Positions 14 through 43,851 of a DNA stretch of 44,376 bases are shown here, one piece after another. Source of the DNA: Rhodobacterales bacterium 32-67-9 (lineage in GTDB: Bacteria > Pseudomonadota > Alphaproteobacteria > Rhodobacterales > Rhodobacteraceae); assembly GCA_002280515.1 (NCBI GenBank), contig NCEA01000044.1, positions 1 to 44,376 of the forward strand. The letters are read 5' to 3'. The position numbers and the translations under genes were made by a program. Within the stretch, counting starts at the first letter, position 1; each line of letters opens with the position of its first letter. The notes under the pieces were generated by a model. That model was given only the letters and a program-made list of their open reading frames with translations. It ran no database searches and was not told the DNA's origin.

Positions 14-29
14 GGTCTTCTCCTCGCTC

Positions 30-44: not shown

Positions 45-154
45 TGTTACGCGGAAAATCCACTTATCCCGGCTGTTCAGATTTCCGCAGCCGCCTCTGT
101 CTTATGTCAGTCATAAAGCCTCCGCGCCCTTACCCGTGAATGGCATGCGCTAGC

Positions 155-1060: not shown

Positions 1061-1243
1061 GGCGCTCTCTCCTCGGTCACGAATCGCGCCTACTATATCT
1101 ATGGGCGGCGGGCCGGGACACTACGATAGACGGTGTGACGGCGGAAATTTAAGCGCGACGACCGGAATTCGGCGGAGACGGCGCTTGGCGGCGGTGGCGG
1201 CGGGCTGGTAGTCTTTCCCGGAACGGCCGGCAGGAGGATGAGG

Positions 1244-3826: not shown

Positions 3827-3839
3827 ATGCGGTCGTCGA

Positions 3840-4337: not shown

Positions 4338-4420
4338 CTCTCTCTCCGCCTGCTCAACTGCCCGGGCGGCAGATTGGGCGGAAAGGGCAAAATTTCGGTT
4401 AAAGGCTCAGAAATCGCTGA

Positions 4421-4696
4421 TCAGGGCGCATTCCGGCGCCCAGAGCGGGCGAAGGTACCGATTTCGGCGACGAGACCGGCGAAGCGCGCCGGCGGCTCGG
4501 CGGCGCCGGTGATCCAGGGGTAGAGGTCCTGATCGTTCTCGGCCAGAAGCGCGTCGTAGAGGTCGAGCGCGGCGGGGGACATTGCCGCCATATGCGCCTC
4601 GGCGAAGGGGCCGAGGATCAGGTCCATCTCCTTCATGCCTCGCCGCCACGACCGCATCGTCATCCGCTTGAGCCGGTTCAGCGCCGCCTCGGTCAT
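4421..4696 (-). CDS. sdhE: FAD assembly factor SdhE
   Basis: A 91-residue helical protein that helps attach FAD covalently to the flavoprotein subunit of succinate dehydrogenase. The hallmark RGxxE motif is present as Arg19-Gly20-Met-Lys-Glu23 in the segment SWRRGMKEMDLILG, and the later DLYPWITG segment is also typical of the family (DUF339/YgfY). Its ATG overlaps the stop of the XRE regulator gene (4693-4696), so translation is probably coupled to it. The sdh operon is not in this window. No homologue of the antitoxin-like neighbour sometimes found beside ygfY is visible. Confidence 0.92.
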   Translation of the reverse strand: MTEAALNRLKRMTMRSWRRGMKEMDLILGPFAEAHMAAMSPAALDLYDALLAENDQDLYPWITGAAEPPARFAGLVAEIGTFARSGRRNAP

Positions 4697-5115
4697 GCGG
4701 CCTCGCTCGCCAGCGCCAGCCGGAGCCGGGATTCGAGCCGGCCGAGGCGGTCGGCCAGGTCGCTCATCTCGGTCCGGATCTGGCGAACCTCGGGCAGGAG
4801 CGCGGCGCTCTCGGCCGACATCGTCGGCCGCGCGTCAGGCGCGTCGATGCCGTCGCCCTCGCCGGTCAGGAGCCACATGAGCGAGACGTTGAGCATCCCG
4901 GCGAGCATCTGCAACCGGTTGGCGCGCGGCTCCTTCAGGTCTTCCTCCCAACCCTGGATGACCTTGGTGCGGACGCCGAGCCGCTGGGCCAGTTCCTTCT
5001 GGCCGAGGCCCATCGCCTCGCGCGCCCCGGCAAGCCGGTCTCCAAAGGTCGCGGTTTCCTCGCTGTACCAGTTGTCGGTCTCTCCGGCGGTGTCGTGCGT
5101 TGCATGCTTTGTCAT
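4693..5115 (-). CDS. XRE-family helix-turn-helix regulator
   Basis: A 140-residue protein. The HTH domain (residues about 24-80) contains FGDRLAGAREAMGLGQKELA and the recognition segment RLGVRTKVIQGWEEDLKEP, followed by RLQMLAGMLNVSLMWLLTGEGDG, a typical XRE ending. Residues 100-135 (EVRQIRTEMSDLADRLGRLESRL) look like a short coiled coil for oligomerisation. An in-frame ATG exists at 5154, but the ATG at 5115 has AGGAAAGGA about 8 nt before it and is chosen. It overlaps sdhE and is divergent from the aminotransferase gene, so it may control the shared upstream region. No ligand or target is identifiable. Confidence 0.88.
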   Translation of the reverse strand: MTKHATHDTAGETDNWYSEETATFGDRLAGAREAMGLGQKELAQRLGVRTKVIQGWEEDLKEPRANRLQMLAGMLNVSLMWLLTGEGDGIDAPDARPTMSAESAALLPEVRQIRTEMSDLADRLGRLESRLRLALASEAA

Positions 5116-5167
5116 CTGGCGAATCCTTTCCTGTGTCTCGGGCCATATGGTCACGACCCGAAGTCGC

Positions 5168-6434
<1,267 letters not shown>

Positions 6435-6444
6435 GGGGAGAGGC

Positions 6445-6873
6445 ATGGCGGGCGATCTGCCGGACTATTATTTCCGTGTTCGCGAAAACGGCGCGGCCGT
6501 GTTCCGGGTGGATACGGAAAACCGCCAGCGTCGGATCGAGATGGACCAGATTGCCCTCGTCAACGTCAAGAACGGCGAAATCCGGCCGCATGGTGACCGG
6601 ACGCTGTCGGATCAAGACATTCAGGCGATCCGCGACTGGATGGCGGACCGGCAGGCGCTGCTCGCGCGGCGCGACATCGACGATATCCACCGTGCGGTCG
6701 ACCATCTCAACCTGACCACGCAATGGGCGCAGTCGAAGGCGTCGGACACGCAGCTCGACGAGGTGACGGACGCGCTCCTCATGGCGATGCACGATCTGCG
6801 CACGGTTCTGGTGCGCAAGAAGTCCGAACGGCTGATGCGGGCTGAAACCGGCGCCGGAGCGGACCAAGGCTGA
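6445..6873 (+). CDS. Conserved hypothetical protein
   Basis: A 142-residue soluble protein without signal peptide or membrane segment; I do not recognise a named family. The first half is a compact strand-rich region (YYFRVRENGAAVFRVD, then IALVNVKNGEIRPHG) and the second half, residues about 60-130, is predicted helical and charged, ending with RTVLVRKKSERLMRAE. The ATG follows GGGGAGAGG at good spacing, 10 nt after the aminotransferase stop, so it is likely the second gene of that operon. The stop is followed closely by a run of ten C (6889-6898) and a cluster of palindromes that may end the transcript. Confidence 0.8.
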   Translation: MAGDLPDYYFRVRENGAAVFRVDTENRQRRIEMDQIALVNVKNGEIRPHGDRTLSDQDIQAIRDWMADRQALLARRDIDDIHRAVDHLNLTTQWAQSKASDTQLDEVTDALLMAMHDLRTVLVRKKSERLMRAETGAGADQG

Positions 6874-6910
6874 CGGCGCCCCCCCCCCGGACGGGCGGCT
6901 TTCCGAATGC

Positions 6911-6960
6911 GGCGCCCATCCGGGCGCCACGAGATATCTCGCCCCGCCTTCGGCCGGGGC
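6911..6960. repeat. Three adjacent palindromes between convergent genes
   Basis: In 50 bp there are GGCGCCC-atcc-GGGCGCC (6911-6928), the perfect 12-bp palindrome CGAGATATCTCG (6930-6941) and GCCCCG-8 nt-CGGGGC (6941-6960). They sit between the stop codons of the small conserved gene (+) and the MATE gene (-), directly before a dispersed repeat unit. A role as bidirectional transcript end or mRNA protection is plausible; there is no T-tract. Confidence 0.55.
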
Positions 6961-6963
6961 TCG

Positions 6964-6999
6964 GGTTGCCTCCGGCGGGGATATTTGACCCAAGTGGAA
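6964..6999 (+). repeat. Dispersed repeat, copy 1
   Basis: The 19-bp core GCCTCCGGCGGGGATATTT lies at 6968-6986, preceded by GGTT and followed after 4 nt by CAAGTGGAA. It is preceded by a GC-rich stem (6941-6960), the same layout as copy 3. It faces copy 2 in inverted orientation, so the two cores could form a 19-bp stem with a 45-nt loop. Confidence 0.7.
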
Positions 7000-7017
7000 A
7001 CAGCGGCTCAGCTTCCC

Positions 7018-7050
7018 TTTCATCTTGCCGGAAATATCCCCGCCGGAGGC
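7018..7050 (-). repeat. Dispersed repeat, copy 2 (inverted)
   Basis: The same 19-bp core lies on the minus strand (7032-7050), followed by CCGG then CAAGATGAAA. Upstream on that strand is a GC stem with CCGCC/GGCGG arms. It sits just beyond the 3' end of the MATE gene. Confidence 0.7.
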
Positions 7051-7094
7051 ATCCGCCGCGCGGCCTGGCGGCACGGATGGAAGCGGGGGCGCCT

Positions 7095-8450
7095 TCACCC
7101 GGCGCGTGCCGCTTCCCTGCCCCAGCGCCCCCAGAACCGCGCCATCAGCGCCGCCGCCGCCACCGCGAGCCCGACGACAAGGCCAAGCCAGAGGCCGGTG
7201 CCGCCTAGGCTGAGCGGGAAGGCCAGCACATAGCTCGCCGGGATGCCGATCAGCCAGTAGCTGACCGAGGCGATGACCATCGGCACGCGGGTGTCCTGCA
7301 CCCCGCGCAAAAGCCCGAGCGCCATGACCTGGGTGCTGTCGGCAAGCTGGAACAGCGCCGCGACCGCGAGCAGTGTCGACGCATAGGCGGTGATCGCCGG
7401 CGCCTGCGGGTTGGCGCGGTCGATAAAAAGCCGGACCAGCGATTCGGGCACGGCGAGGAAGACCGCCACCACCATAGCGGCGACGGCCAGCGACAGGCCG
7501 ATCGCCGTCACCGCCCCGCCCTTCAGCGCGGCGAAGTCGCCCGCGCCCTGCGCCCGGCCCGCGCGCACCGTGGCGGCGTTCGAAAGCCCGAGATGGGCCA
7601 TGAAGGTGATCGCCACCAGCTCAAGCGCGATGCCGTGCGCGGCGAGTTCCATCGTGCCGATCCAGCCCATCATCACCGCCGCTGCCGAGAAGAGTCCGCC
7701 CTCGAAAAGGCCGGTCAGGCCGATCGGCCAGCCGAGCCGGTAGACCTGGTGCAGGGCCGGCCAGTCCGGCCGCCAGAACCGCTGGAAGAGGTGGAAGCGG
7801 CGCAACGCGGGATGAAACTCGGCGTAGACCGCCATGACTGCGAGGGTCAGGATCTGGGTGGCGACCGAGGCGATGGCGGCCCCCTTCACCCCAAGTTCGG
7901 GCGCGCCCCAGTGGCCGAAGATCAGTGCCCAGTTGAGCCCGGTGTTGAGAACCACCCCCGCCAGCGTCGCCCAGAGCACGACGCCCGCCCGCTCCAGCGC
8001 CGAAAGGTAGCTTTTCAGCGCCATGATCAAAAGCGCCGGCACCATCCCCGCCCCGGCGACGCGCAGATAGTCCTGCGCCAGCGCCGCCACTTGCTCTTCC
8101 TGCCCGAGGGAGCGCAGGATCGGCCCGGACCAGAACATGGCCGGATAGATCGCGACCCCGTAGAGGATCGAGAGCCAGAGCCCCATCCGCGTGTCGCGAC
8201 GCACCTGCGTCTCGTCTCCGCGCCCGAGGGCGGTGGCGACCATCGGCATCACCGCCTGGGCAAAGCCGGAACCGAGGATGAAGAGGACAAAGAAGGTCGA
8301 GGCCCCGAGCACCACGGCGGCAAGTTCGGTGATGCCGTACCAGCCGACCATCACCGTATCGGTGACATGCAGCGCCATCTGCGCGAGGTTCGAGCCGATC
8401 AGCGGCAGGCCCAGCGCCAGGAGCGCCCGCCCGTGGGCGGCATATGTCAT
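7095..8450 (-). CDS. MATE-family multidrug/sodium efflux transporter
   Basis: An inner-membrane exporter of the NorM/DinF type, about 451 residues, using a sodium or proton gradient to expel organic cations. Twelve hydrophobic segments can be traced from LALGLPLIGSNLAQMALHVTDTVMVGWYG at the N-terminus, with the family's Asp in the TDTVMVGWYG segment and an internal repeat beginning near residue 240 (LGWPIGLTGLFEGGLFSAAAVMMGWIG). ATG at 8450 follows GGAGAGG closely; an upstream ATG at 8462 and GTG at 8465 lack a good ribosome site, so the N-terminus may be up to five residues longer. The substrate is unknown. Confidence 0.9.
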   Translation of the reverse strand: MTYAAHGRALLALGLPLIGSNLAQMALHVTDTVMVGWYGITELAAVVLGASTFFVLFILGSGFAQAVMPMVATALGRGDETQVRRDTRMGLWLSILYGVAIYPAMFWSGPILRSLGQEEQVAALAQDYLRVAGAGMVPALLIMALKSYLSALERAGVVLWATLAGVVLNTGLNWALIFGHWGAPELGVKGAAIASVATQILTLAVMAVYAEFHPALRRFHLFQRFWRPDWPALHQVYRLGWPIGLTGLFEGGLFSAAAVMMGWIGTMELAAHGIALELVAITFMAHLGLSNAATVRAGRAQGAGDFAALKGGAVTAIGLSLAVAAMVVAVFLAVPESLVRLFIDRANPQAPAITAYASTLLAVAALFQLADSTQVMALGLLRGVQDTRVPMVIASVSYWLIGIPASYVLAFPLSLGGTGLWLGLVVGLAVAAAALMARFWGRWGREAARAG

Positions 8451-8524
8451 CCTCTCCGTCATCACCGACGCTTACGCCGGGGACCGGCCAAGGTCCAGAC
8501 CGGCCAAATCAACACAGGTCTCGG

Positions 8525-9100
8525 TCAGCCCGGCAGATTCGCTGGCGGCCCCTTGACCGGCACCGGCAAGGGGGCGGTGTTCCACGCCGCCGCCTCGTCT
8601 TCAGCAAGGGACCGGCCGAGATGGGCGCTGACCATCGCCGGGTCGGCATCCTCGATCCGGGTGAACCCGGCGCGTTCGGAGATCTTGCGGATCGCCAGGT
8701 TGGACTTGAGGTAGAAGACCCAGATCTCCCTCACATCGCGGGTCCGGGCGGCGCGCACGGCGCTGGCGAAGAGCGCGGCACCGATGCCGCGCCGATGCCA
8801 GGCGTCTTCGACCGACAGCGCGATCTCGGCCACCGGCCACGGGCCGGGACGGACGTGAAGCTCGGCCATGCCGCAGAGATGATCCCCCACCCGCGCCTCG
8901 ATGAGCGCCACCGGCGCCGTCCGCGCGGCGTATTTCGCGATCGCCGCGTCAGAGGTCCAGCCGAGGAAACGGTTCAACCGGGTGTCGGGGCCAAGCCGCA
9001 GGAGGTGATCGCGAAGCCGGTCGCGCCAGTCGGCCCGCTCCGGGCAGGAGCTGGTCGGCAGCGTCGAGAGCGTGAGGTCCGGTAGGGTCTGGGCCGGCAT
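8525..9100 (-). CDS. GNAT-family N-acetyltransferase
   Basis: A 191-residue protein with the GNAT acetyl-CoA-binding segment around residues 105-125 (ALSVEDAWHRRGIGAALFASAV), in which RRGIGAAL is the expected Q/RxxGxG/A motif. It is followed by VFYLKSNLAIRKISERAGFTR, the usual C-terminal part of the fold. The substrate is unknown. The ATG at 9100 starts a protein that aligns well with the fold; in-frame ATGs upstream would run through a palindrome at 9121-9137 and are less likely. It lies 59 nt upstream of the MATE gene on the same strand, so the two may be co-transcribed. Confidence 0.85.
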   Translation of the reverse strand: MPAQTLPDLTLSTLPTSSCPERADWRDRLRDHLLRLGPDTRLNRFLGWTSDAAIAKYAARTAPVALIEARVGDHLCGMAELHVRPGPWPVAEIALSVEDAWHRRGIGAALFASAVRAARTRDVREIWVFYLKSNLAIRKISERAGFTRIEDADPAMVSAHLGRSLAEDEAAAWNTAPLPVPVKGPPANLPG

Positions 9101-9120
9101 GGGAGCCCCGCTTCTGCGCA

Positions 9121-9137
9121 TGCAATGCTGCATTGCA
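9121..9137. repeat. 17-bp perfect inverted repeat upstream of the acetyltransferase gene
   Basis: TGCAATGC-T-GCATTGCA has 8-bp perfect arms and a single-base centre, lying 21-37 nt upstream of the chosen ATG on the minus strand. Size, symmetry and position suit an operator for a dimeric regulator, but no regulator gene is adjacent. Confidence 0.45.
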
Positions 9138-9220
9138 GAAACAAGATGGGACCGGCGCTGCTGGAATGGAATACCCAATACCCGCAGGCGGCGCAGTCCC
9201 GCCATGCGCTGCGCGACACC

Positions 9221-9255
9221 CCGCCGCCCTGCCCGGTTTTCAGGCAGGGCGGCGG
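9221..9255 (-). terminator. Strong hairpin downstream of ppk2
   Basis: CCGCCGCCCTGCC (9221-9233) and GGCAGGGCGGCGG (9243-9255) form a perfect 13-bp stem with a 9-nt loop, about 45 nt past the ppk2 stop. There is no T-run on the minus strand, so it is either a Rho-assisted end or a 3' mRNA-protecting hairpin. The neighbouring gene on that side also reads on the minus strand. Confidence 0.55.
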
Positions 9256-9300
9256 TGAATTTAAAGGCGCAGGGGCCGGCCCGGCCGACCTTGGCGCGTT

Positions 9301-10407
9301 TCAGCCGGGGATCTTGTCCTCGGCCGGCGCTGCCTTAGACGCAGATTTCGACCGGCGCGGACTGGACGGCGCGGCCGCATCGACCGGCGCCTCCTCGGCG
9401 CGGGCCCGCCGCATGTCGGGATGCAGGGAGGCGCCGAGGATATGTTCGGCGCCGTGAACGACGTGGCTGGCGCGGCCGACGATCAGCGGATCGGGCGACT
9501 GCACCACCTCCTGATCCTTGCCGGGATAGTCGAGCGAGGCGAGGAAGTGGCGCATGCAGTTGAGCCGCGCGCGCTTCTTGTCGTTCGACTTGACGATGGT
9601 CCAGGGCGCGTCGGCGGTGTCGGTGTAGAAGAACATCGCCTCCTTCGCTTCGGTGTATTCATCCCACTTGTCGAGGCTGGCCTTGTCGATGGGTGAGAGT
9701 TTCCAGCGTTTAAGAGGGTCGGTTTCCCGGCTTGCAAACCGCTGGCGCTGTTCTTCCTGCGTCACCGAGAACCAGTATTTGTAAAGCCGGATGCCCGACC
9801 GGACGAGCATCCGCTCCAGTTCCGGCACCTGGCGCATGAATTCGAGGTAGTCGGTCGGCGAGCAGAAGCCCATGACCCGTTCCACTCCGGCGCGGTTGTA
9901 CCAGGACCTGTCGTAGAAGACCATTTCGCCGGCGGTCGGCAGATGCTCGATATAACGCTGGAAGAACCATTGGCCGCGTTCCTGGTCCGACGGCTTGTTG
10001 AGCGCGACGACGCGGGCGAACCGCGGGTTGAGATGCTCCATGAAGCGCTTGATCGTGCCGCCCTTGCCGGCGGCGTCGCGACCCTCGAAGAGGATGACGA
10101 ACTTCTGCCCCGTCTCCTGTGCCCAGAGCTGGACCTTCAGAAGCTCGGCCTGAAGACGCGCCTTTTCGGCCTCGTAGGCAGCCCGCGCCATCCTGCGCGC
10201 ATAAGGATAGTTACCGCTTTCGAAGGCGTGGCGGATGTCGTCGGCGTTGACGACCGGAAAGGTCTTCGGCCCCTTTGCTGCCGCGCCATTGGCCGATTTT
10301 CGGCCCTTTACAGGTGGTGCGGACCCGTCTGTCGGGCCGGACGATGCGACCGGTTCCGAAATCGCCTCCACCACGTCACTCGGCATTTGAGTCACCTCTA
10401 CTGTCAT
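9301..10407 (-). CDS. ppk2: Polyphosphate kinase 2
   Basis: Transfers phosphate between polyphosphate and nucleotides (GDP or ADP to the triphosphate). The 368-residue protein has one PPK2 domain (residues about 52-300). Walker A is EGRDAAGKGGT at 108-118, and the Walker B/lid segment is YDRSWYNRAGVERV at 165-178, both perfect family motifs. The N-terminal 50 residues and the C-terminal 40 (Ala/Arg/Ser/Pro rich) are low-complexity tails. The ATG follows AAGGAGAAG. Upstream lies an FNR-type box at the exact class II position, implying induction at low oxygen. A strong 13-bp hairpin follows the gene. It stands alone as a transcription unit. Confidence 0.95.
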   Translation of the reverse strand: MTVEVTQMPSDVVEAISEPVASSGPTDGSAPPVKGRKSANGAAAKGPKTFPVVNADDIRHAFESGNYPYARRMARAAYEAEKARLQAELLKVQLWAQETGQKFVILFEGRDAAGKGGTIKRFMEHLNPRFARVVALNKPSDQERGQWFFQRYIEHLPTAGEMVFYDRSWYNRAGVERVMGFCSPTDYLEFMRQVPELERMLVRSGIRLYKYWFSVTQEEQRQRFASRETDPLKRWKLSPIDKASLDKWDEYTEAKEAMFFYTDTADAPWTIVKSNDKKRARLNCMRHFLASLDYPGKDQEVVQSPDPLIVGRASHVVHGAEHILGASLHPDMRRARAEEAPVDAAAPSSPRRSKSASKAAPAEDKIPG

Positions 10408-10438
10408 CGCGCTTCTCCTTTCCTGTGCGAACCGGTGG

Positions 10439-10480
10439 ATTATGTCACATTCCGGCGCGAACGGCCTTGATACGGGTCAA
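10439..10480 (-). promoter_or_regulatory. FNR/FnrL-type promoter of ppk2
   Basis: On the minus strand TTGACCCGTATCAA (10480-10467) matches the FNR consensus TTGAT-N4-ATCAA with one substitution. A -10 element CATAAT (10444-10439, 5 of 6 consensus) follows. The inferred transcript start near 10432 places the box centre at -41.5, the standard class II activator position, with a 25-nt leader to the ppk2 ATG. FNR-family proteins activate low-oxygen genes in Rhodobacteraceae. Confidence 0.7.
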
Positions 10481-10589
10481 ATTGCGGGCACGATGGGCCG
10501 GGTTTGGCCGATCGTCGCGGGCGCCTTGGGGGCTACCGTTTCACGCGGCTTCGCGCTACCGATTGGGCAGTCAAGACCGGGAGAAGACC

Positions 10590-11249
10590 ATGCTGACCAT
10601 CTACGGCGTCTACCGCAGCCGCGCCTCGCGCAATTTCTGGCTTCTGAACGAGATCGACATGCCCTTCGACCATGTCCCGGTGATCCAGGGCTACCGCCTG
10701 CCCGATCCCGAGGCCGAGAATGCGCCGTTCAACACGCTCTCGCCCGGTTTCCTGTCGATCAGCCCGGCCGGCGCGGTGCCGGTCCTGAAGGACGGCGATT
10801 TCGTCCTGTCTGAATCGCTGGCGATGAACCTCTACGTCGCGCGGAAAGCGGGCGGGCCGCTGGCCCCCGCCGACGCCCGGGAGAACGCGCTAATGGAACA
10901 GTGGGCGCTTTACGGCGTGACGGCGATCGAGGCGCATGCCCTCGCCATCATGTATGCCCATGCCGAGGGCCGCGCCAAAAGCCCCGAGGGCGAGGCCGAG
11001 ATCGCCGCCGAGGTGGCGCGCCTGCGCCGGCCGCTCGGTGTCCTCAACTCGCATCTGCGCGAACACGGGCACATGGTCGGCGGCCGCTTCACCGTGGCCG
11101 ACATCAACATGGCCGAGATCCTGCGCTATGCCCAGGCCGAGCCGGGGCTGCTCTCGGGTTATCCCGAGATCGAAAGCTGGCTCGCCGCCTGCCACGCCCG
11201 ACCCGCGTTCAAGGCGATGTGGGAACGGCGGCTGGCGGAGCCGGCATAG
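10590..11249 (+). CDS. Glutathione S-transferase family protein
   Basis: A 219-residue soluble protein with the thioredoxin-like N-terminal domain (MLTIYGVYRSRASRNFWLLNEI, with catalytic-type Ser/Tyr near residues 8-12, and the cis-Pro segment SPAGAVPVL followed by LSESLAMNLYVA, the glutathione-binding E-S pair). An all-helical C-terminal domain contains VGGRFTVADINMAEIL, the N-capping box typical of GSTs. The ATG follows GGGAGAAG. It is divergent from ppk2. The closest likeness is to bacterial GSTs of unknown substrate. It converges on the methyltransferase gene with a repeat-containing 279-bp gap. Confidence 0.92.
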   Translation: MLTIYGVYRSRASRNFWLLNEIDMPFDHVPVIQGYRLPDPEAENAPFNTLSPGFLSISPAGAVPVLKDGDFVLSESLAMNLYVARKAGGPLAPADARENALMEQWALYGVTAIEAHALAIMYAHAEGRAKSPEGEAEIAAEVARLRRPLGVLNSHLREHGHMVGGRFTVADINMAEILRYAQAEPGLLSGYPEIESWLAACHARPAFKAMWERRLAEPA

Positions 11250-11342
11250 GGCGGAGGTCGGGGCAGACCGGTCAGGGGCGGGTTTGAGCTTGTAGCGGGT
11301 GAGGCGCGCCCTTTCCAAATGCCAAGCCCGGGCGACCAGCCC

Positions 11343-11474
11343 GGGCCGCGCCCGACCCTCCCCCCGGGAGGGCGCATTGCAACGTCTGACATATGAAATC
11401 CGTCGGAGGCATATGGCGCCATAAAGCGCCCCGCTCTCGGTAGCAAAGCGCCCACCCAGGGTCGGGCGCGGCCC
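11343..11474. repeat. 132-bp element with 17-bp perfect inverted ends
   Basis: GGGCCGCGCCCGACCCT (11343-11359) and its exact reverse complement (11458-11474) bound 98 bp. Inside are a second stem competing with the left arm (CCCTCC/GGAGGG), two copies of CATATG flanking 14 bp, and GGCGC/GCGCC. It lies between the convergent GST and methyltransferase genes. It looks like a small non-coding dispersed repeat; no transposase and no clear target duplication are visible. Confidence 0.55.
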
Positions 11475-11528
11475 TCCGCACGTCGGCTAGGTCGGCCCAC
11501 TCCGCCCCGCTCCGCGACCTCGCCCCCC

Positions 11529-12122
11529 TCATCCCGGTTTCCGCGCGACGAAGTCGATCAGCGCCGAGCGCCCCGAGTGGCCGCGACCTTCATCGACCTC
11601 GGCATCGAAATCCTCGGCCCTCAGCACCTCGTAGCCGGCGAACGCCCCGCGCAGGAGGTCGAGAGTGTACATGTTCGCCGGATCGGGCGGCCCGCCCGTC
11701 GCGTAGCCCACCTGCCTCGGCGCGTATCCGTGCAGGAGGAGAAGCCCGCCGGGCCTGAGCGCGGCGTCGATCCGTTCGAAAAGCGCGGCCCGGTCGGCCG
11801 GGCCGACGAACTGGATGAAGATACCCGCCACGACATCGAATTTTCGCGACCAGTCCCAGCCGTCGAGGTCGCTCAGGTGGAACGCCACCTCCACGCCGCG
11901 CTCCGCCGCGAGCTTGCGCGCCTTCGCGATGGCATTCGGGGCCGAATCGAAGGCGGTGACCCGCAGCCCCTCTGCCGCGAGCCAGACCGAATTCCGCCCC
12001 TCGCCATCGGCGATCGCCAGAACCGTCGCGTCCGGCGTCAGCCATTCCGCAACCCTGGGCAGGAAATCGGCGGGCTCGGTGCCGAAAAGATAGTCGTCTC
12101 CCGCGTAGCGCTCATTCCACAT
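11529..12122 (-). CDS. SAM-dependent methyltransferase, class I
   Basis: A 197-residue cytoplasmic protein. The start MWNERYAGDDYLFGTEP is typical of TehB-like or thiopurine-methyltransferase-like proteins. Motif I is ATVLAIADGEGRNSVWLA (residues about 30-47), which contains DGEGRNS in place of the usual GxGxG but is common in this subgroup. The acidic motif II follows at VTAFDSAPNAIAKARKLA and the motif IV region is FDVVAGIFIQF. ATG at 12122 has AAGGGAGAG upstream and is preferred to an in-frame ATG 13 codons earlier. The substrate is unknown; tellurite or thiol methylation is possible but unproven. Confidence 0.87.
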   Translation of the reverse strand: MWNERYAGDDYLFGTEPADFLPRVAEWLTPDATVLAIADGEGRNSVWLAAEGLRVTAFDSAPNAIAKARKLAAERGVEVAFHLSDLDGWDWSRKFDVVAGIFIQFVGPADRAALFERIDAALRPGGLLLLHGYAPRQVGYATGGPPDPANMYTLDLLRGAFAGYEVLRAEDFDAEVDEGRGHSGRSALIDFVARKPG

Positions 12123-12260
12123 TGCGACTCTCCCTTGTGGCGCGAACCGCGCCGGGCCCAATATTTCGCGGGTCTACGGGCCGGTTCGCCCGCTCACCGC
12201 TTGCCCCTCCGGCCCCCGCATGGTCTAATCTCGCCTCAATCATAAAGACGAGCAGAGCGC

Positions 12261-14216
12261 ATGGCGAACGACTTCTTTTCCGGCCAGCCGGACGACTACA
12301 ACGCCTCCTCCATCGAGGTTCTGGAGGGGCTGGAGCCTGTCCGCAAGCGCCCCGGCATGTATATCGGCGGCACCGACGAACGCGCGCTCCACCACCTCGT
12401 GGCCGAGATTCTCGACAACTCGATGGACGAGGCTGTGGCCGGCCACGCGACCCGCATCGAGGTCGAGCTGAACGCCGACTTCTCGGTCACCATCCGCGAC
12501 AACGGCCGCGGGATGCCCGTGGACGAGCATCCGAAATTCCCCGGCAAGTCGGCACTCGAGGTGATCCTCTGCACCCTCCACGCGGGGGGCAAGTTTTCCG
12601 GCAAGGCCTACGAGACCTCCGGCGGCCTCCACGGTGTCGGCGCCTCCGTCGTCAATGCGCTCTCGGACTCGATGGTGGTCGAGGTCGCCCGCAACAAGGA
12701 GCTTCACGAACAGCGCTTCTCGCGCGGCATCCCCCTGGGTCCGGTGCGGAAAGTCGGCGCCGCCCCGAACCGGCGTGGCACCTCCGTCACCTTCCACGCC
12801 GACGAGGAGATCTTCGGCCACCACCGTTTCAAGCCGGCGCGGCTTCTGAAGATGGTGCGCTCCAAGGCCTATCTCTTCTCCGGGGTGGAGATCCGCTGGA
12901 AATCCGCCATCGACGACGGCGAGACGCCGTCTGAGGCGGTCTTCCACTTCCCCGGCGGGCTATCCGACTACCTCGCCGAGAACCTCGAAGGTTCCTCGAC
13001 CTATGCCGACCGGCCCTTCGCCGGCAAGGTCAGCTTCGCCGACAAGTTCGGCGAGCCGGGCAGCGTCGAATGGGCGATCAACTGGACGCCGTCGCGCGAC
13101 GGCTTCATCCAGTCCTACTGCAACACCGTGCCGACGCCCGAGGGTGGCACCCACGAGGCCGGCTTCTGGGCCGCGATCCTCAAGGGCATCCGCGCCTACG
13201 GCGACCTCGTGAAGAACCGCAAGGCCGAGCAGATCACCCGCGACGACCTGATGACCGGCGGCTGCGCGCTCGTCTCGTGCTTCATCCGGGAGCCGCAATT
13301 CGTCGGCCAGACCAAGGACCGGCTCGCCACCGAGGCCGCAGCAAGGATGACCGAAGGCGCGGTCAGGGACCATTTCGACAACTGGCTCGCCGCCGACACC
13401 AGGTCCGCCGGTGCGATCCTCGATTTCCTGGTGCTCCGCGCGGAGGAGCGCCTGCGCCGCCGGCAGGAGAAGGAGACGGCGCGCAAGACCGCGACCAAGA
13501 AGCTGCGCCTGCCCGGCAAGCTCGTCGACTGTTCCGCCACCAGCCGCGAGGGGACGGAGCTTTTCATCGTCGAAGGCGACAGCGCCGGCGGCAGCGCCAA
13601 GATGGCGCGCGACCGCAAGACCCAAGCGCTGCTGCCTCTCCGCGGCAAGATCCTCAACGTCCTTGGCGCCGCCTCGTCGAAGCTCGGTAGCAACCAGGAA
13701 ATCTCCGATCTCTCCCAGGCCCTCGGCTGCGGCATGGGCACCCGCTTCAACATCGACGACCTGCGCTACGACAAGGTCATCATCATGACCGATGCCGACG
13801 TCGACGGGGCGCATATCGCGTCGCTCCTGATGACGTTCTTCTTCACCCAGATGCGGCCGATGATCGACAAGGGGCATTTGTATCTCGCCTGCCCGCCGCT
13901 TTACCGGCTGACGCAGGGGTCCAAACGCATCTACGTCGCCGACGATGCGGAGAAGGAGCGGATGCTGGCCAAGGGCCTCGGCGGCAAGGGCAAGATCGAC
14001 GTCCAGCGCTTCAAGGGCCTCGGCGAGATGGACGCCAAGGACCTGAAGGACACCACCATGAACCCCTTGACCCGGAAACTGATCCGGGTCAGCATCGACG
14101 ACGAGTTTCCCGGAGAGACCGGCGATCTGGTCGAGCGGCTGATGGGCAAGAAACCCGAGCTGCGGTTCCAGTATATCAGCGAGAACGCGCGGTTCGTGGA
14201 GGAGCTGGATGTGTAG
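12261..14216 (+). CDS. parE: DNA topoisomerase IV subunit B
   Basis: The ATPase subunit of topoisomerase IV, which with ParC decatenates chromosomes before segregation. The 651-residue protein is full length. The GHKL ATPase domain is at residues about 20-220 with EILDNSMDEA, DNGRGMPVD and GGLHGVGASVVNAL. The transducer follows, then the TOPRIM domain with EGDSAGG near 437-443 and DADVDGAHI near 513-521, and the C-terminal block QRFKGLGEMDAKDL. The absence of the extra GyrB insertion supports ParE over GyrB. The ribosome site (GAGCAGAG) is modest. parC is not in the window. Confidence 0.95.
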   Translation: MANDFFSGQPDDYNASSIEVLEGLEPVRKRPGMYIGGTDERALHHLVAEILDNSMDEAVAGHATRIEVELNADFSVTIRDNGRGMPVDEHPKFPGKSALEVILCTLHAGGKFSGKAYETSGGLHGVGASVVNALSDSMVVEVARNKELHEQRFSRGIPLGPVRKVGAAPNRRGTSVTFHADEEIFGHHRFKPARLLKMVRSKAYLFSGVEIRWKSAIDDGETPSEAVFHFPGGLSDYLAENLEGSSTYADRPFAGKVSFADKFGEPGSVEWAINWTPSRDGFIQSYCNTVPTPEGGTHEAGFWAAILKGIRAYGDLVKNRKAEQITRDDLMTGGCALVSCFIREPQFVGQTKDRLATEAAARMTEGAVRDHFDNWLAADTRSAGAILDFLVLRAEERLRRRQEKETARKTATKKLRLPGKLVDCSATSREGTELFIVEGDSAGGSAKMARDRKTQALLPLRGKILNVLGAASSKLGSNQEISDLSQALGCGMGTRFNIDDLRYDKVIIMTDADVDGAHIASLLMTFFFTQMRPMIDKGHLYLACPPLYRLTQGSKRIYVADDAEKERMLAKGLGGKGKIDVQRFKGLGEMDAKDLKDTTMNPLTRKLIRVSIDDEFPGETGDLVERLMGKKPELRFQYISENARFVEELDV

Positions 14217-14303
14217 CAAAACCGCAACACCGATTGACTCCGCCATCGGCACCCCCTAGATCTTGTGGCACCTCCTATGTGGGGGCAGAAAGGAGCGATC
14301 CAC

Positions 14304-14384
14304 ATGGACGCTTTTATATCTGCTCTTAACTCGAGGCGGTGGAGACAACGCTTCGCCGGAGCGCCGATAAGGTGTTTTGGGTAA
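14304..14384 (+). CDS. Possible 26-residue small protein or leader peptide
   Basis: An ATG with AAAGGAG about 7 nt upstream opens a 26-codon frame (begins MDAFISALNSRRW, ends APIRCFG, stop TAA). The peptide is basic with an amphipathic start. It lies upstream of the structured region 14399-14711, so it could be a leader peptide, a small membrane-active protein or a chance frame. I do not recognise a family. Confidence 0.25.
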   Translation: MDAFISALNSRRWRQRFAGAPIRCFG

Positions 14385-14398
14385 GGAACAAATCGTTG

Positions 14399-14420
14399 CC
14401 TTGCAGCGTTATCTGCAAGG
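14399..14420. repeat. Hairpin with 8-bp perfect stem
   Basis: CCTTGCAG-cgttat-CTGCAAGG, followed on the plus strand by TCCAGAAAAA. It lies 15 nt after the stop of the 26-codon ORF. On the minus strand the A-run would precede the stem, so it is not a classic terminator in either direction. Confidence 0.45.
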
Positions 14421-14518
14421 TCCAGAAAAACGGGCGATAGCTGCCACGACGGCGCCGGCAAATAGCCGGAAAACCCGTCGAGGCGGTTGGTGCCGCCGGC
14501 CCGCTGGATAAGTTTCGA

Positions 14519-14612
14519 GGCGTCTCGTCTTGGCGCTCTCGGGTTAACGCGAAGCACTCGGCCTCTGGCCGAACAAGTGGAGCAGGAACCCGACTTAGAG
14601 AGGCGAGACGCC
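14519..14612 (+). ncRNA. Candidate structured RNA, three nested helices
   Basis: Outer helix GGCGTCTCG (14519-14527) pairs with CGAGACGCC (14604-14612). The middle helix TCGGGTT (14539-14545) pairs with AACCCGA (14587-14593) and can be extended by three pairs across a bulge. The inner hairpin is TCGGCC-tct-GGCCGA (14558-14572). All three are perfect and correctly nested in 94 nt, which is more than expected by chance. The strand is not determined by sequence; plus is given only because both flanking genes read that way. Confidence 0.35.
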
Positions 14613-19627: not shown

Positions 19628-20119
19628 TCAGCGCGGGGCGCGGCGCCGGAACGGCGTGGCGATCAGGGTAAGAAGCCCCATCACCGCCGCCCAGCCACCG
19701 AGAAAACCGATCCCGGAGGTGGTCAGCCCGGTCAGCGTCACCGGCACCGCCGGCTTGAATTCGGCGAGCGTCGCCTTGAAGAGATCGGTGTCGGCGAAGC
19801 GTTGCGGCATGAAGACCCGCTCCACCGGCCCGGCCGCGCGCAGGAGTGTGAGGTCGGCGGAGAGCCGGTCGAAGCGCGTGAAGGCATTGCGCATGTCGTC
19901 CTGCCGGAAGCCGAGAAACTCGGTCCCGGTCATCGAGTCGAGCGCCTTTTCGCGGTCCATCCCGGCCTTCGCCGCCGAGGCGTCGAAATCGGCGGTGACG
20001 GCGGCCAGCGCATCGACCTGCCCGCCGAGACGCTGGAGGTATTGCTGCGAGAATTCGGGGAACTGCGACAGCGTCCCCGCCCCGGCCAATCCCCCGACGA
20101 AGGCGAGCAGCCTCAGCAT
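19628..20119 (-). CDS. DUF2937 family membrane protein
   Basis: A 163-residue protein of unknown function. It begins with a hydrophobic segment LLAFVGGLAGAGTLSQFPEF, typical of DUF2937, followed by a helical, coiled-coil-like region (YLQRLGGQVDALAAVTADFDASA, residues about 28-110). A C-terminal membrane helix IGFLGGWAAVMGLLTLIATPF ends in basic FRRRAPR. The start codon shares one base with the proS stop (TGATG), so it is translationally coupled to the broken proS and lies between proS and lolC. Confidence 0.82.
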   Translation of the reverse strand: MLRLLAFVGGLAGAGTLSQFPEFSQQYLQRLGGQVDALAAVTADFDASAAKAGMDREKALDSMTGTEFLGFRQDDMRNAFTRFDRLSADLTLLRAAGPVERVFMPQRFADTDLFKATLAEFKPAVPVTLTGLTTSGIGFLGGWAAVMGLLTLIATPFRRRAPR

Positions 20120-21344
20120 CAGCGGCCCTCTGAGATCTGGGCGTAGATCTGGGCCACGCGGTCGATCGCGGCCTCGGGCGACATCTCCTCGCTTGTCCCG
20201 CTGCGGCGCGAGGTCAGCTCGACCTTGCCGGCGGCAAGGCCGCGCGGGCCGACGGTGATCCGCCACGGCAGGCCGATGAGGTCCATCGTGGCGAACTTGG
20301 CGCCGGCGCGTTCGTCGCGGTCGTCGTAAAGCGGCTCGAGCCCCTTGGCGCGCAGCCCGGCATAGAGCGCGGCGCAGGCGGCGTCGGTGCCGGCATCGCC
20401 CTGCTTGAGGTTGACGATCCCGACCGGGAAGGGGGTCACGCCCTCGGGCCAGATGATGCCCTTCTCGTCATGGCTCGCCTCGATGATCGCGCCGAGCAGG
20501 CGGGAAACACCGATCCCGTGCGAGCCCATGTGGACCGGCACCCGGGTGCCTTCGGGGGCGACCACGGTCGCGCCCATCGGTTCGGAATACTTGGTGCCGA
20601 AGTAGAAGATCTGCCCGACCTCGATGCCGCGCCCGACCTTGCGGTGCGCCTCCGGCACCCCGGCGAAGACCGCCTCGTCATGGGTCTCGTCGGTGCGGGC
20701 GTAAAGCGTGGTGAACTCGGCGCAGACCTTCGCGACCTGGTCCTTGTCGTCATAGTCGATGATGCGGGCGCCGAGCTTCAGCGCGGTGACGCGGTCGTCG
20801 TAGAAGACCTCGCTCTCGCCGGTTTGCGCCAGGACGAGGAATTCGTGGGTGTTGTCGCCGCCGATCGGCCCCGAGGCCGCGCGCATCGGGATCGCGGTCA
20901 GGCCCATCCGCTCGTAGGTCCTGAGGTAGCTGACCATGTGGCGGTTGTAGGCGTGAAGCGCGTCTTCCTTCGACACGTCGAAATTGTAGCCGTCCTTCAT
21001 CAGGAATTCGCGGCCGCGCATGACGCCGAAGCGCGGGCGGATCTCGTCGCGGAACTTCCACTGGACGTGGTAGAGTGTCAGTGGCAGGTCCTTGTAGCTG
21101 CTGACATGGCTGCGGAAGATGTCGGTGATCATCTCCTCGTTCGTCGGCCCGTGGCGCGGATCTGTTCCTGGTGCACGATCTCCTCGATCCGGCGCAGGAC
21201 CCGGAAGCCGAGCGGCAGCCAGGAATAGATGCCGGCGGCCTGCTGCTTGATCATGCCGGCGCGCAGCATGTAGCGGTGGCTGACGATCTGCGCCTCGGAG
21301 GGGTTTTCCTTTAGGACGGGCAGGAAATAGCGGGAAAGGCGCAT
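20119..21344 (-). pseudogene. proS: Prolyl-tRNA synthetase, interrupted by an internal deletion and frameshift
   Basis: Normally charges tRNA-Pro in the cytoplasm. The first 60 or so codons ([19 protein letters not shown] to HQEQIRA) are intact. At about 21150 the sequence jumps from QIRA straight into [12 protein letters not shown] of the normal protein in another frame, and the first frame stops soon after. The family has about 42 residues here, including the class II motif 1 region (GHIPMLMPTLQP), so about 124 nt are missing. Everything downstream (motif 2 in [17 protein letters not shown], motif 3 in [12 protein letters not shown], the anticodon domain) is undamaged to the stop. ATG 21344 is the family start. 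Either an assembly defect or a real loss with proS elsewhere. Confidence 0.88.
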
Positions 21345-21478: not shown

Positions 21479-21532
21479 GCCGCCTTGTGGCGGCCCGGTT
21501 GCCTCCGGCGGGGATATTTCGGGCAAGATGAA
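21479..21532 (+). repeat. Dispersed repeat, copy 3
   Basis: GC stem GCCGCC-ttgt-GGCGGC (21479-21494), then GGTT, the 19-bp core GCCTCCGGCGGGGATATTT (21501-21519), and after 4 nt CAAGATGAA. This is the same layout as copy 1 near 6941-6999. It lies 24 nt beyond the recN stop, on the opposite strand to recN and proS. Confidence 0.7.
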
Positions 21533-28473: not shown

Positions 28474-29357
28474 TGCCCTGCCACCTTGGTTTCAAGTTCA
28501 TCTAGACCGCCCGGAGCCGCGAGGCGGATCGTCGGTCGGTTGGTATTGCGCATGTCAACGTCGGTGATGGCGCGCCCCAACATGTCTTCGGCCTGATCGA
28601 GCGCGATCACCCGCCGCACCGCCTCCACCGGCCCCGTCTCGGGCAGGAGGATGCGCTGGTCACGGTCGAGGATGATGTCCCAGCGCCGCTCGCCGACGCG
28701 GACAAGGCCGCGGATGCGGGCGTGGATCGGGCGCGCGGCATCGAGGATCTCCTGCGCCTCGGCCACGCGGGCATCCGCACCCTCGCCGGCGATGACCGGC
28801 AGGTCGGGCCGCGCGGTCCGGTCGAGCAGCGTCGCCACCCGGCGCCCTGTCGCATCGAGCATCTCGAGCCCCGTCCCGGTGCGCCAGAGAACCGCCGGCT
28901 GGCGTTCGGTCACCGTTACCTGAAGGATGCCGCCCTTGCGGATATACAGGTCCGCCGAGGCCACCGCGTCGATCTGCGCGATCGTCGCGCGCAGGGCAGC
29001 AAGGTCGAGCCGGAAGGACGAGGCGGGAAGAGTCACCGGCAGCATCGATCGGATCGCGTTCGCGACCGGCTCCGACGCGCCGTCGATCGCCATCAGGCTG
29101 ACCCGGAATTCCGGCCGGTTCTCGACACTTTCCCTCAGATCGGCGAGCATCGTCTGCAACGCCCCGCGCCGGTCGGCGTCGGCAAGATAGCCGACGACGG
29201 TCGCGACGATCAGGAAGGACGGCAGGCCGACCCGCACCACCTTGCGGAACGCCGGCGTCAGCCAGAGCCGTTCCACCCGGTAGGAAAGGCGCGACGGCGC
29301 CGGATCGCGGCGCGGCGGTTCGGCATGGCGGCGTTCGGGTCCTCTCAGCGGTTGCAT
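28470..29357 (-). CDS. ftsQ: Cell division protein FtsQ
   Basis: A bitopic divisome protein, 295 residues. The N-terminal cytoplasmic tail is basic, rich in Arg and Pro, and one transmembrane helix lies at about 49-65 ([17 protein letters not shown]). A periplasmic POTRA domain follows ([24 protein letters not shown], residues about 90-160), then the FtsQ domain with [15 protein letters not shown]. The ATG at 29357 lies 13 nt inside the ddl reading frame, so translation would normally be coupled to ddl. The stop overlaps the ftsA start. Confidence 0.93.
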
Positions 29358-30126
29358 GAGGCATCCTCCACGATCCAGGCGCAGAGATCGGCAAAGCTCA
29401 TCCCCTCGGCCGCCGCCTGTTCGGGGCTGAGCGATGTCGGCGTCATCCCCGGCTGGGTATTGGTCTCGAGAATGAAAAGGCCGGCGAGGCCGCGCGCCTC
29501 GTCCCAGCGGAAATCGCTGCGGCTGAGCCCGCGACAGCCAAGCGCCCGGTGCGCGCGCAGGGCGTAATCGCGGCAGGCCTCTGAAATCTCTTGCGGCAGG
29601 TCGGCCGGGCAGACATGCGACGACCCGCCGGGCGCGTATTTGGCATGGTAGTCGTACCACCCCGCCGTCACGATCTCGGTCACGCAGGTCGCGCGGTCGC
29701 CGAGGACAGAACAGGTCAGTTCGCGCCCCGGCACATAGGCCTCGACCATCGCGATGTCCGGCATCTCGGCACCGAGATGGGGCGGTGAATTGGCGTCCCG
29801 GTCGACGATATAGACCCCGACCGAGGAGCCTTCGGCATTCGGCTTCACGACGTAAGGCGGCGCCATCACGTGGCGGGCCATGACCTCGACCTTCGGGGCG
29901 AGAAGGCTCTCGACCACTGGCAGCCCGGCGGCGCGGAAGATGTCCTTGGCGCGGGTCTTGTCCATCGCCAGCGCCGAGCGGCATCGAGCTCGACCACCTG
30001 ATATCCCGCCTCCCGCAGGGCGTTGACGCACTCGCGTCCGCTTGACAGAGACACCTCCCGCTCTGCGGAAGGGCCGCCCATCAGTACCGCCACCTTGGGG
30101 GCTGTCCTGCTCGACCTGCCCGCCAA
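29345..30126 (-). pseudogene. ddl: D-alanine--D-alanine ligase, interrupted by an internal deletion and frameshift
   Basis: Normally makes the D-Ala-D-Ala dipeptide of peptidoglycan. It starts at TTG 30126 behind GAGG; the first 50 codons ([20 protein letters not shown] to VVELDA) are normal. Near 29977-29984 the sequence jumps to [21 protein letters not shown] in a different frame. The family has about 48 residues between these points, including the catalytic/ATP-site block NALHGRWGEDGCVQG, so about 142 nt are missing and the frame is lost. The remainder ([33 protein letters not shown], to the stop) is intact. Flanked by murB and ftsQ as usual. See the proS entry for a second case. Confidence 0.9.
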
Positions 30127-30172: not shown

Positions 30173-31111
30173 CTACGCGTCTGCCTCGGGCGTCTTTTCG
30201 CCCACGCGCATGATTTCCCACTCTAGCGTCAAACCGCTGATTTGGAAAACCCTTTTTCTGACATCCTCGCCCAAACCTTCCAGATCGGCGGCGGTGGCGG
30301 TACCGGTGTTGATCAGGAAATTCGGATGCTTCTCGCTCATCTGCGCGCCGCCCCGCCGCGCGCCCCTGAGACCGGCGGCATCGATCAGCGACCAGGCCTT
30401 GAGATCGTGGACATCGTCCGCCCGTCCGGTCGAGGAAAATCCCGCAGGATTGCGGAAGGTGGACCCCGCCGAACGGTCCTTCACCGGCTGCGTCGCGTCG
30501 CGTTTGGCGATCTGCTCGGCCATCCTGGCCTCCAGCGCCGTGGGGTCGCCCTTGGGCCCCTCGAACACCGCCTCGACGATCACCGCGCCCTCGGGCAGCG
30601 CCGAGGAGCGGTAGCCAAAGCCCATCCCGGCAGCGCCGATGGTCCGGAGCGTGCCGTCCCGCATAACGACCGTTGCCTGAACCAGATGATCGGCCGTGTA
30701 GCTGCCATAGCAGCCCGCGTTCATCCGGACAGCACCGCCGATGGCGCCGGGAATGGTGCGCAGGAAAGTGAGGTCCACCCCCGCCTCTGCCGCCTTCCGC
30801 GCCACATGCGCGTCAAGCGCCGCCGCCCCCGCAGTCACCCGGGTGCCCGCGACCGAGATCCCGTTGAACCCGCGCCCGAGCCGGATCACCACGCCCCGTA
30901 TGCCGCCGTCCCGCACGATGAGGTTGGAGCCGACGCCCATCGGAAAGACCGGCACATCACCGGGCAGCGCCGCAAGGAAGGCCGCGAGGTCATCGGCATC
31001 GGACGGCTGGAACAGCACCTCCGCCGGCCCGCCGACACGCAGCCAGGTCAGATCGGCGAGCGGCCGGTTCGGGGTCAGCGTGCCCCGGACGGAAGGAAGC
31101 GTCAGCGTCAT
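30173..31111 (-). CDS. murB: UDP-N-acetylenolpyruvoylglucosamine reductase
   Basis: An FAD enzyme that completes UDP-MurNAc in the cytoplasm. The 312-residue protein has FAD-binding segments [34 protein letters not shown] and [22 protein letters not shown]. The catalytic serine is in [14 protein letters not shown], and the proton-transfer Arg is in FGYRSSAL. The ending EVR-K-RVF-x-x-SG-x-x-LE-EI-x-x-VG is typical of type II MurB. No strong ribosome site precedes the ATG. The gene ends 47 nt before ddl with a hairpin between. Confidence 0.95.
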
Positions 31112-42405: not shown

Positions 42406-43851
42406 CTACTCCGTCCCCCGCGCTTCGCCCGCGCCCGGTTGCCCGAGTTTGCGGAGTGCGTCAACCACAAGGCTGACCTTCGATCCCTTGGAGCCCTTGA
42501 CCAGCAGAACATCGCCGGCGTCGGCCAGATGATGGGCGCGGGCGGCAAGGTCCGGGGCGGTTTCGTGCCATTCCCCGCGCTTCGGCGCCGGCAGCACCTC
42601 CCAGAGGTCGCGCATCCGCGTGCCGACACAATGGACGAGGTGAACCCGACCGAGGGTCGGAAGCGCCGCGATGGCCCGGTGCATCGCGGCCTCATCCGGG
42701 CCAAGCTCCAGCATGTCGCCAAGGATCGCGATGCGGCGGCCTTCGAGGATGCGGCCGATGCCGTCGCGCGGCGTCGCCGCCGCAAGCACGTCGAGCGCGG
42801 CCTCCATCGAGGCCGGATTGGCGTTGAAGGCATCGTCTATGAGGTCGAAGGACAGGTTCTCGTCGACGATGTCGAGGTAGATCCGCTCGCGCTGGCCGCG
42901 CCCCGGCGGCGGGCTCCAGCGGCCGATGTCGCAGGCGGCGACGGCCGGGTCGGCGCCGGTCGCCTCGGCCACGGCGAGGACGCCGAGCGCGTTGGCGGCG
43001 AAGTGGCGGCCTGCGGTCTGGACCTTGAAGAGGATCGGCGCGCCGAGGCGGGTCGCGGTCACGATGGTCGTGTCGTCGGCCAGCCGGACGCCGGTCAGGC
43101 GGTAGTCGTCGTCCGCCTCGGAGCCGAAGCGGATGACGCGGGCGGCGCGCGCCGCGCCGGCGGCGAGGATCGGCGTGACCGTGAGGCCCGACGGGATCAC
43201 CGCGATCCCGTCCGGTTCCAGCCCGTCGAAGATCGCGGCCTTTTCACGGGCGATCCCGTCGAGCCCGTCGAAAGCTTCGAGATGGGCGGGGGCGATGGTG
43301 GTGATCATCGCCACATGCGGCCGGGTCAGGTGCGCGAGGGGCGCGATCTCTCCGGGGTGGTTCATGCCGATCTCGATCACCGCGAAATCGGCGTCGACCG
43401 GCAGCCGCGCCAGCGTGATCGGCACGCCCCAATGGTTGTTGAAGCTCGCCTCGGCGGCATGGACACGGCCCTGCCCGGCAAGGACCGCGCGCAGCATCTC
43501 CTTGGTCGAGGTCTTGCCGACCGAGCCGGTCACCGCGATCACCCGGGCCTTGGTGCGTGCCCGTCCTGCAGCGCCGAGGGCGGTCAGCCCGGCCAGGACA
43601 TCCGGCACGATCAGGAGCGGATCGGCCTCCGAGCAGCCTTCCGGGATGCGCGAGACCAGCGCCGCCGCCGCGCCCTTGTCGAGCGCCTGGCGGACGAAGT
43701 CGTGGCCGTCGCGCACATCCTTCAGCGCGACGAAGAGATCGCCGGCCTCAAGGCTGCGGGTGTCGATGGAAATTCCCATCGCGTCAAAGGGTTGCGTTGC
43801 CCGCCCGCCCGTAGCGGCGGTGGCTTCTGCCGAAGTCCAGAGCGCCGCCAT
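42406..43851 (-). CDS. murF: UDP-MurNAc-tripeptide--D-alanyl-D-alanine ligase
   Basis: Adds the D-Ala-D-Ala dipeptide (the product of Ddl) to the UDP-MurNAc tripeptide. The 481-residue protein has an N-terminal domain with GISIDTRSLEAGDLFVALKDVRDGHDFV, the ATP loop VIAVTGSVGKTSTKEMLRAVL near 110-130, the motif FAVIEIGMNHPGEIAPL and a C-terminal ligase domain with DDAFNANPASMEAAL. It shares one base with the murE stop (TGATG) and abuts mraY. It depends functionally on ddl, which appears broken here. Confidence 0.96.
   Translation of the reverse strand: MAALWTSAEATAATGGRATQPFDAMGISIDTRSLEAGDLFVALKDVRDGHDFVRQALDKGAAAALVSRIPEGCSEADPLLIVPDVLAGLTALGAAGRARTKARVIAVTGSVGKTSTKEMLRAVLAGQGRVHAAEASFNNHWGVPITLARLPVDADFAVIEIGMNHPGEIAPLAHLTRPHVAMITTIAPAHLEAFDGLDGIAREKAAIFDGLEPDGIAVIPSGLTVTPILAAGAARAARVIRFGSEADDDYRLTGVRLADDTTIVTATRLGAPILFKVQTAGRHFAANALGVLAVAEATGADPAVAACDIGRWSPPPGRGQRERIYLDIVDENLSFDLIDDAFNANPASMEAALDVLAAATPRDGIGRILEGRRIAILGDMLELGPDEAAMHRAIAALPTLGRVHLVHCVGTRMRDLWEVLPAPKRGEWHETAPDLAARAHHLADAGDVLLVKGSKGSKVSLVVDALRKLGQPGAGEARGTE

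What the first reader, a model, noticed from the sequence alone, without database searches (positions are those of the whole stretch)
29940..30030. ddl lacks about 142 nt, including the HGxxGEDG block, and is out of frame
The normal N-terminus (to VVELDA) is joined near 29980 to [11 protein letters not shown], skipping about 48 family residues with the conserved NALHGRWGEDGCVQG segment. The flanks are intact. As ddl makes the substrate of MurF, encoded in the same cluster, a true loss would be lethal without a second ddl or vancomycin-type ligase elsewhere.
Basis: partly seen in the sequence, partly recalled or inferred. Interest (0 to 1): 0.75.

Follow-up and report, generated by a model that had tools for sequence, protein, structure and literature searches.

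The report
Assembly error breaks a ligase gene
A draft bacterial genome seems to lack a piece of an essential cell-wall gene, but other genes in the same draft, one of them also essential, lack pieces in the same blunt way, so this is almost certainly an assembly mistake and not biology.

Summary
On the minus strand, ddl (30126..29345) lacks 142 nt at 29979|29978 against 23 of 24 relative loci (the 24th could not be scored); the loss holds the HGxxGEDG block and shifts the frame. No second D-Ala-D-Ala ligase was found in the draft; the other ATP-grasp hits run are carboxylases, CarB and PurD. The cause is almost surely technical. The same contig has a second blunt, out-of-frame loss of 124 nt at 21153|21152, in the only copy found of proS, against 15 of 15 scorable relatives. 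Over 331 kb aligned to the relative G013, this draft lacks eight stretches of 70-505 nt at abrupt joints; under the same rule G013 lacks none. The draft is scaffolded, with four N runs in the 1.12 Mb read, and the two runs tested have wrong sizes: 46 N for 55 nt and 108 N for 5 nt, each in 11 of 11 relatives computed. The remaining ddl and proS parts show purifying selection and no stops. I read the break as a scaffold join written without Ns. Reads were not available, so this is inference, but a living cell without Ddl and ProRS is not credible.

The parts
29979..30126 (-). ddl, N-terminal part (probable TTG start at 30126, by comparison with relatives; the ATG at 30081 lies inside the conserved first strand)
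   Evidence: NF002378 profile 4-45
29978..29979 (-). blunt joint; 142 nt present in relatives are absent here (the HGxxGEDG block lies in them)
29345..29978 (-). ddl, C-terminal part (ATP-grasp domain), in another frame
   Evidence: NF002378 profile 95-304
21153..21344 (-). proS (prolyl-tRNA synthetase), N-terminal part
   Evidence: NF008979 profile 1-62
21152..21153 (-). second blunt joint; 124 nt present in relatives are absent here, frame shifted
20119..21152 (-). proS, C-terminal part, in another frame
   Evidence: NF008979 profile 107-436
42406..43851 (-). murF, intact frame; uses the product of Ddl
30173..31111 (-). murB, intact frame, upstream neighbour of ddl

Best explanation
The break is an error of the genome assembly. 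Two contigs of a scaffolded draft (probably short-read and metagenome-derived) were laid end to end inside ddl, with the unsequenced 142 nt between them dropped and no Ns written, most likely because the estimated gap size was about zero or negative. The organism itself most likely carries an ordinary intact ddl. Shown: the exact length, the bluntness, the lack of another ddl in the draft, the same lesion in the only proS found, the one-sided excess of such lesions in this draft, and wrong N-run sizes. Inferred: that the joint is a scaffold join, what kind of data the draft came from, and that the living organism's gene is intact.
For: (1) ddl and proS, two genes cells are expected to need and for which no other copy was found, are both broken by blunt 1-mod-3 losses 8.8 kb apart on one contig. 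(2) Over 331,269 nt aligned to G013, eight stretches (70, 96, 99, 109, 124, 142, 146, 505 nt) are missing from this draft at abrupt joints and none from G013 under the same rule. Against G010, contig C52 shows the same two losses and G010 none over 27,806 nt. At gene level, 4 of 263 G013 ORFs have at least 30 residues skipped with a frame change and no spacer in this draft, against 0 of 262 in the reverse test (one of the four is doubtful). (3) Besides ddl, two joints were checked against many relatives: 124 nt at proS in 15 of 15 scorable, and 99 nt at C49:102977 in 15 of 16 (the 16th, a distant one, gives 102), each out of 24 relatives searched. (4) Four N runs (50, 38, 108, 46) lie in the 1.12 Mb read; two were tested and both sizes are wrong, by 9 and by 103 nt. 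(5) dN/dS of the remaining parts is low (ddl_C 0.07-0.12, ddl_N 0.19-0.34, proS_N 0.04-0.11, proS_C 0.14-0.26), with no stops. (6) No bases are shared across the ddl joint, so it does not look like a slip between direct repeats.
Against: No reads or coverage could be inspected, so the joint itself is untested. Of the eight missing stretches only four are shown or likely to break a frame (ddl, proS, C49:79837, C4:58957); one is in frame, and for three the coding status was not settled, so some may be real differences. Shorter gaps lean the other way: of gaps of 20-49 nt inside matches, 2 are missing from this draft and 8 from G013. A 130-nt stretch present in G010 is absent from G013 in a control comparison of about 17 kb, so one-sided differences of this size do occur between other genomes. 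The short ddl_N piece (48 codons) has dN/dS partly above that of murB (0.145-0.20). Neither tested N run underestimates its gap by as much as 142 nt (46 for 55, 108 for 5). A blunt join needs a scaffolder or a chimeric read behind it, and the assembler used is unknown.
Confidence: 0.95

Rival explanations
1. A real deletion inactivated ddl in this population, and the ligase is supplied by a second ddl or a Van-type ligase lying in the unassembled part of the genome.
For: The draft is 93.6% complete, so a second gene could be missing. The ddl joint is clean.
Against: No second ddl-type ligase was found by three family searches; six other ATP-grasp places were looked at and match carboxylases, CarB and PurD. 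proS is broken in the same way and no other copy was found, so two such rescues would be needed. The remaining parts show purifying selection and no stops.
Confidence: 0.02
2. The assembler followed a minority of real or chimeric molecules carrying the deletion, in a population whose majority has intact ddl.
For: A blunt joint can come from a chimeric read; drafts from mixed samples can do this (general knowledge).
Against: The same pattern at proS and at other places, together with N runs of wrong length, is better explained by one systematic scaffolding cause.
Confidence: 0.025
3. A functional split or recoded ddl (frameshifting across the joint, or two subunits).
For: Both flanking frames are open.
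Against: About 47 residues with the HGxxGEDG block are absent, so a change of frame would not supply them; 104 of 104 other loci have the block. proS would need the same device.
Confidence: 0.005

Closest known systems
Local assembly errors and faulty scaffold gaps in metagenome-assembled genomes (Genome Res 2020;30:315, PMC7111523; passages seen)
   Same: The passages describe local assembly errors without read support, N gaps put in wrongly at scaffold joins, and incomplete or incorrect protein-coding sequences reaching public databases.
   Different: The passages seen describe Ns inserted despite overlap, and unsupported consensus; they do not describe sequence dropped at a join without Ns, which is my inference here.
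DdlB-type D-alanine--D-alanine ligase of the dcw cluster (NF002378, TIGR01205, PF01820 + PF07478)
   Same: Both remaining parts match NF002378 in order (profile 4-45 and 95-304) and sit between murB and the ftsA/ftsZ region, as in the dcw cluster (the cluster order and the name DdlB are recalled).
   Different: Profile positions 46-94, with HGxxGEDG, are missing and the frame changes.

Membership tests
D-alanine--D-alanine ligase (NF002378 / TIGR01205) | N-terminal domain (PF01820) complete | tested here: not met
   Only PF01820 positions 1-50 of 121 matched, though over the cut-off at 39.4 bits
D-alanine--D-alanine ligase (NF002378 / TIGR01205) | ATP-grasp C-terminal domain (PF07478) | tested here: met
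   128.1 bits, positions 34-203 of 204, over the cut-off
D-alanine--D-alanine ligase (NF002378 / TIGR01205) | HGxxGEDG block | tested here: not met
   Lies in the missing 142 nt; present in 104 of 104 other loci
D-alanine--D-alanine ligase (NF002378 / TIGR01205) | one reading frame over the curated score | tested here: not met
   Pieces score 52.3 and 237 bits on NF002378 against a cut-off of 243; the G013 protein scores 386
Assembly artefact (scaffold joint without Ns) | same kind of lesion elsewhere in the same draft, not in relatives | tested here: met
   Eight against zero over 331 kb against G013; proS and C49:102977 specific to this draft against 15 of 15 and 15 of 16 scorable relatives
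Assembly artefact (scaffold joint without Ns) | draft is scaffolded, with unreliable gap sizes | tested here: met
   Four N runs in 1.12 Mb; 46 N for 55 nt and 108 N for 5 nt
Assembly artefact (scaffold joint without Ns) | no read support across the joint | not testable with these tools
   No reads are held
Pseudogene by decay | further stops or frameshifts and relaxed selection in the remaining parts | tested here: not met
   No stops in the pieces; dN/dS 0.07-0.34 for the ddl parts

The most novel reading that the evidence does not exclude
A living population of this Rhodobacteraceae species truly lacks functional ddl and proS at these places and makes its D-Ala-D-Ala and Pro-tRNA by genes in the roughly 6% of the genome that is not in the draft.
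Probability: 0.015. Interest if true: 0.55.

Novelty: not a real feature. Interest (0 to 1): 0.05.

Why it matters
As biology it probably does not matter. As a warning it does: conserved essential genes in a draft with good completeness figures can carry clean out-of-frame losses with no Ns to mark them, so gene-loss claims from such drafts need a search for sister lesions and a look at the reads.

Tried and rejected
A second ddl or Van-type ligase: PF07478, PF01820 and TIGR01205 searches of the own draft gave the two ddl pieces plus other ATP-grasp places. Four of those pass the low PF07478 cut-off (26.6-39.1 bits), but none has a PF01820 match and none reaches the TIGR01205 cut-off. The matched pieces of six places score best as biotin carboxylase (three), pyruvate carboxylase, CarB and PurD; the second C25 place was not run.

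The missing piece elsewhere in the own draft: the matching stretch of G019 (L007) found nothing; no positive control was run, and the tool says that such an empty answer shows nothing by itself.

A base-composition or hairpin cause: the six missing stretches looked at in G013 are ordinary in GC, and the five compared with random stretches are not unusually foldable; the two on C4 were not looked at. Rejected.

Slippage between direct repeats: no shared bases at the ddl joint. Rejected.

Decay: no stops and low dN/dS. Rejected.

G010 as a second reference: little synteny with the G013 blocks (about 17 kb), so it served only near the window.

Finding the organism's own record: the genome-contig scan gave 80 loci of named relatives, and its note says that the own record may be left out. 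That the draft is metagenome-derived is inferred.

In one search one of the four large gene-level breaks (a small protein at C4:66355) is not a blunt joint at DNA level and may be a chance case. Eight further rows in the own direction and eight rows in the reverse direction show smaller skips; one of the own rows is the LysR-like lesion at C49:79837 already counted at DNA level. Genes are ORFs of 150 codons or more picked by a GC rule, not curated genes.

Full report
What was checked. The window is the whole contig C52 of a 3.72 Mb draft in 60 contigs, 93.6% complete and 2.0% contaminated. Its nearest named relatives are Defluviimonas, Frigidibacter and unnamed Rhodobacteraceae drafts. The minus strand carries a cell-division and cell-wall cluster: murF, murD, ftsW, murG (just under its curated score), murC, murB, ddl, an ORF at the place of ftsQ (no NCBIfam match), ftsA, ftsZ, lpxC, recN, proS and a lolCE-type gene.

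Matches to relatives break at this base, and the relatives hold 142 nt there in 23 of 24 aligned loci (the 24th lacked an aligned N-side). The ends of the missing stretch share no bases with the flanks. The missing part holds the HGxxGEDG block.

No replacement was found. PF07478, PF01820 and TIGR01205 in the own draft find the two pieces and other ATP-grasp places; six of these, run as matched pieces, score best as biotin carboxylase (three), pyruvate carboxylase, CarB and PurD. A true loss should therefore be lethal (general knowledge of Ddl and MurF), unless a gene lies in the unassembled part.

The same lesion sits in proS. At 21153|21152 the contig lacks 124 nt, again blunt and 1 mod 3. 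The same 124 nt are implied in 15 of 15 relatives that could be scored, out of 24 searched: 14 of 15 of the same genus, and one of nine of the same class. The two pieces match proline--tRNA ligase NF008979 at profile 1-62 and 107-436. No other proS was found in the own draft: the only further TIGR00409 hit is a 41.5-bit match, under the cut-off, in a 998-residue frame. One contig thus lacks parts of two genes that cells cannot be expected to do without.

The class is assembly-wide and one-sided. I read about 1.12 Mb of the own draft and compared it with 580 kb of G013, a relative whose main contig is 4.17 Mb. 331,269 nt aligned, in six contigs (C52, C49, C56, C25, C10, C4); eight of the 14 contigs read (C39, C1, C2, C3, C20, C31, C60, C11) had less than 5 kb aligned to a block and were dropped. 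Rule: one side has -3 to 8 nt between neighbouring matches, the other at least 50. Missing in own: C52:21152 (124), C52:29978 (142), C49:79837 (70, LysR-like gene, frame changes), C49:102977 (99, GMC-oxidoreductase-like gene, in frame), C49:173040 (146, coding status not settled), C49:214725 (505, no frame open across it in G013), C4:58957 (109, VWA-like gene, frame changes), C4:96397 (96, frame not assigned). Missing in G013: none. The gene likenesses on C49 and C4 are recalled from the protein sequence, not from a family search. C49:102977 is specific to this draft against 15 of 16 scorable relatives, the 16th giving 102 in place of 99; the other C49 and C4 joints were seen against G013 only. 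At gene level 263 G013 ORFs could be scored in the own draft and 262 own ORFs in G013; at least 30 residues skipped with a frame change and no spacer occurred in 4 against 0 (one of the four is doubtful).

Results that lean the other way. Gaps of 20-49 nt inside matches are 2 in own against 8 in G013, so this draft is not short of sequence in general; the excess lies in longer, abrupt losses. In a 17-kb control between G010 and G013, one 130-nt stretch is missing from G013, so such differences are not unknown between genomes.

The draft is scaffolded and its gap sizes are poor. Four N runs (50, 38, 108, 46) were seen in the stretches read. At C11:141431-141476, 46 Ns stand where 11 of 11 relatives computed have 55 nt; at C2:15507-15614, 108 Ns stand where 11 of 11 have 5 nt (20 relatives searched each time), and two distant relatives added later also give 5. 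The other two runs were not tested. Errors of about 100 nt in gap size are thus present, and a true gap of 70-142 nt could be taken as zero or negative. That a scaffolder then abuts the contigs without Ns is my inference. The published account of such drafts that I looked at (passages of PMC7111523) describes local assembly errors, N gaps put in wrongly at scaffold joins, and incorrect protein-coding genes reaching databases; it does not name this exact form in the passages I saw. Two paper searches were run; of the other papers only the listings with abstract starts were seen.

Nothing looks like decay. The pieces hold no stops, and dN/dS is 0.07-0.12 for the C-part of ddl, 0.19-0.34 for its short N-part (48 codons) and 0.04-0.26 for the proS parts, against 0.145-0.20 for intact murB and 0.01-0.16 for ftsZ. 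The N-part of ddl thus lies mostly above murB but far below 1.

Verdict. A correct and careful observation of an assembly artefact. The living organism most likely has an ordinary ddl. The remaining doubt is that reads could not be seen.

Noticed in passing
window 21152-21153: proS (prolyl-tRNA synthetase) lacks 124 nt at a blunt joint and changes frame, like ddl.
   Followed up: yes
L132:19837 and L134:2977 (C49:79837 and C49:102977), L235:18957 (C4:58957), L237:16397 (C4:96397): Further stretches of 70-109 nt missing from this draft at abrupt joints, two of them with a change of frame in apparent genes.
   Followed up: partly
L249:1431-1476 and L159:15507-15614: N runs whose length is wrong against relatives: 46 for 55 nt and 108 for 5 nt.
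   Followed up: yes
window 21496-21532, also 7019-7055 and 6939-6986: An element of about 40 nt between recN and proS recurs at 12 further listed places in the own draft (81-95% identity) and many in relatives: looks like a short dispersed repeat of the genus.
   Followed up: no
   Followed up: no
window 1-14600: This part has no match in the G013 blocks fetched, so synteny with G013 ends there or the contig is joined there.
   Followed up: no
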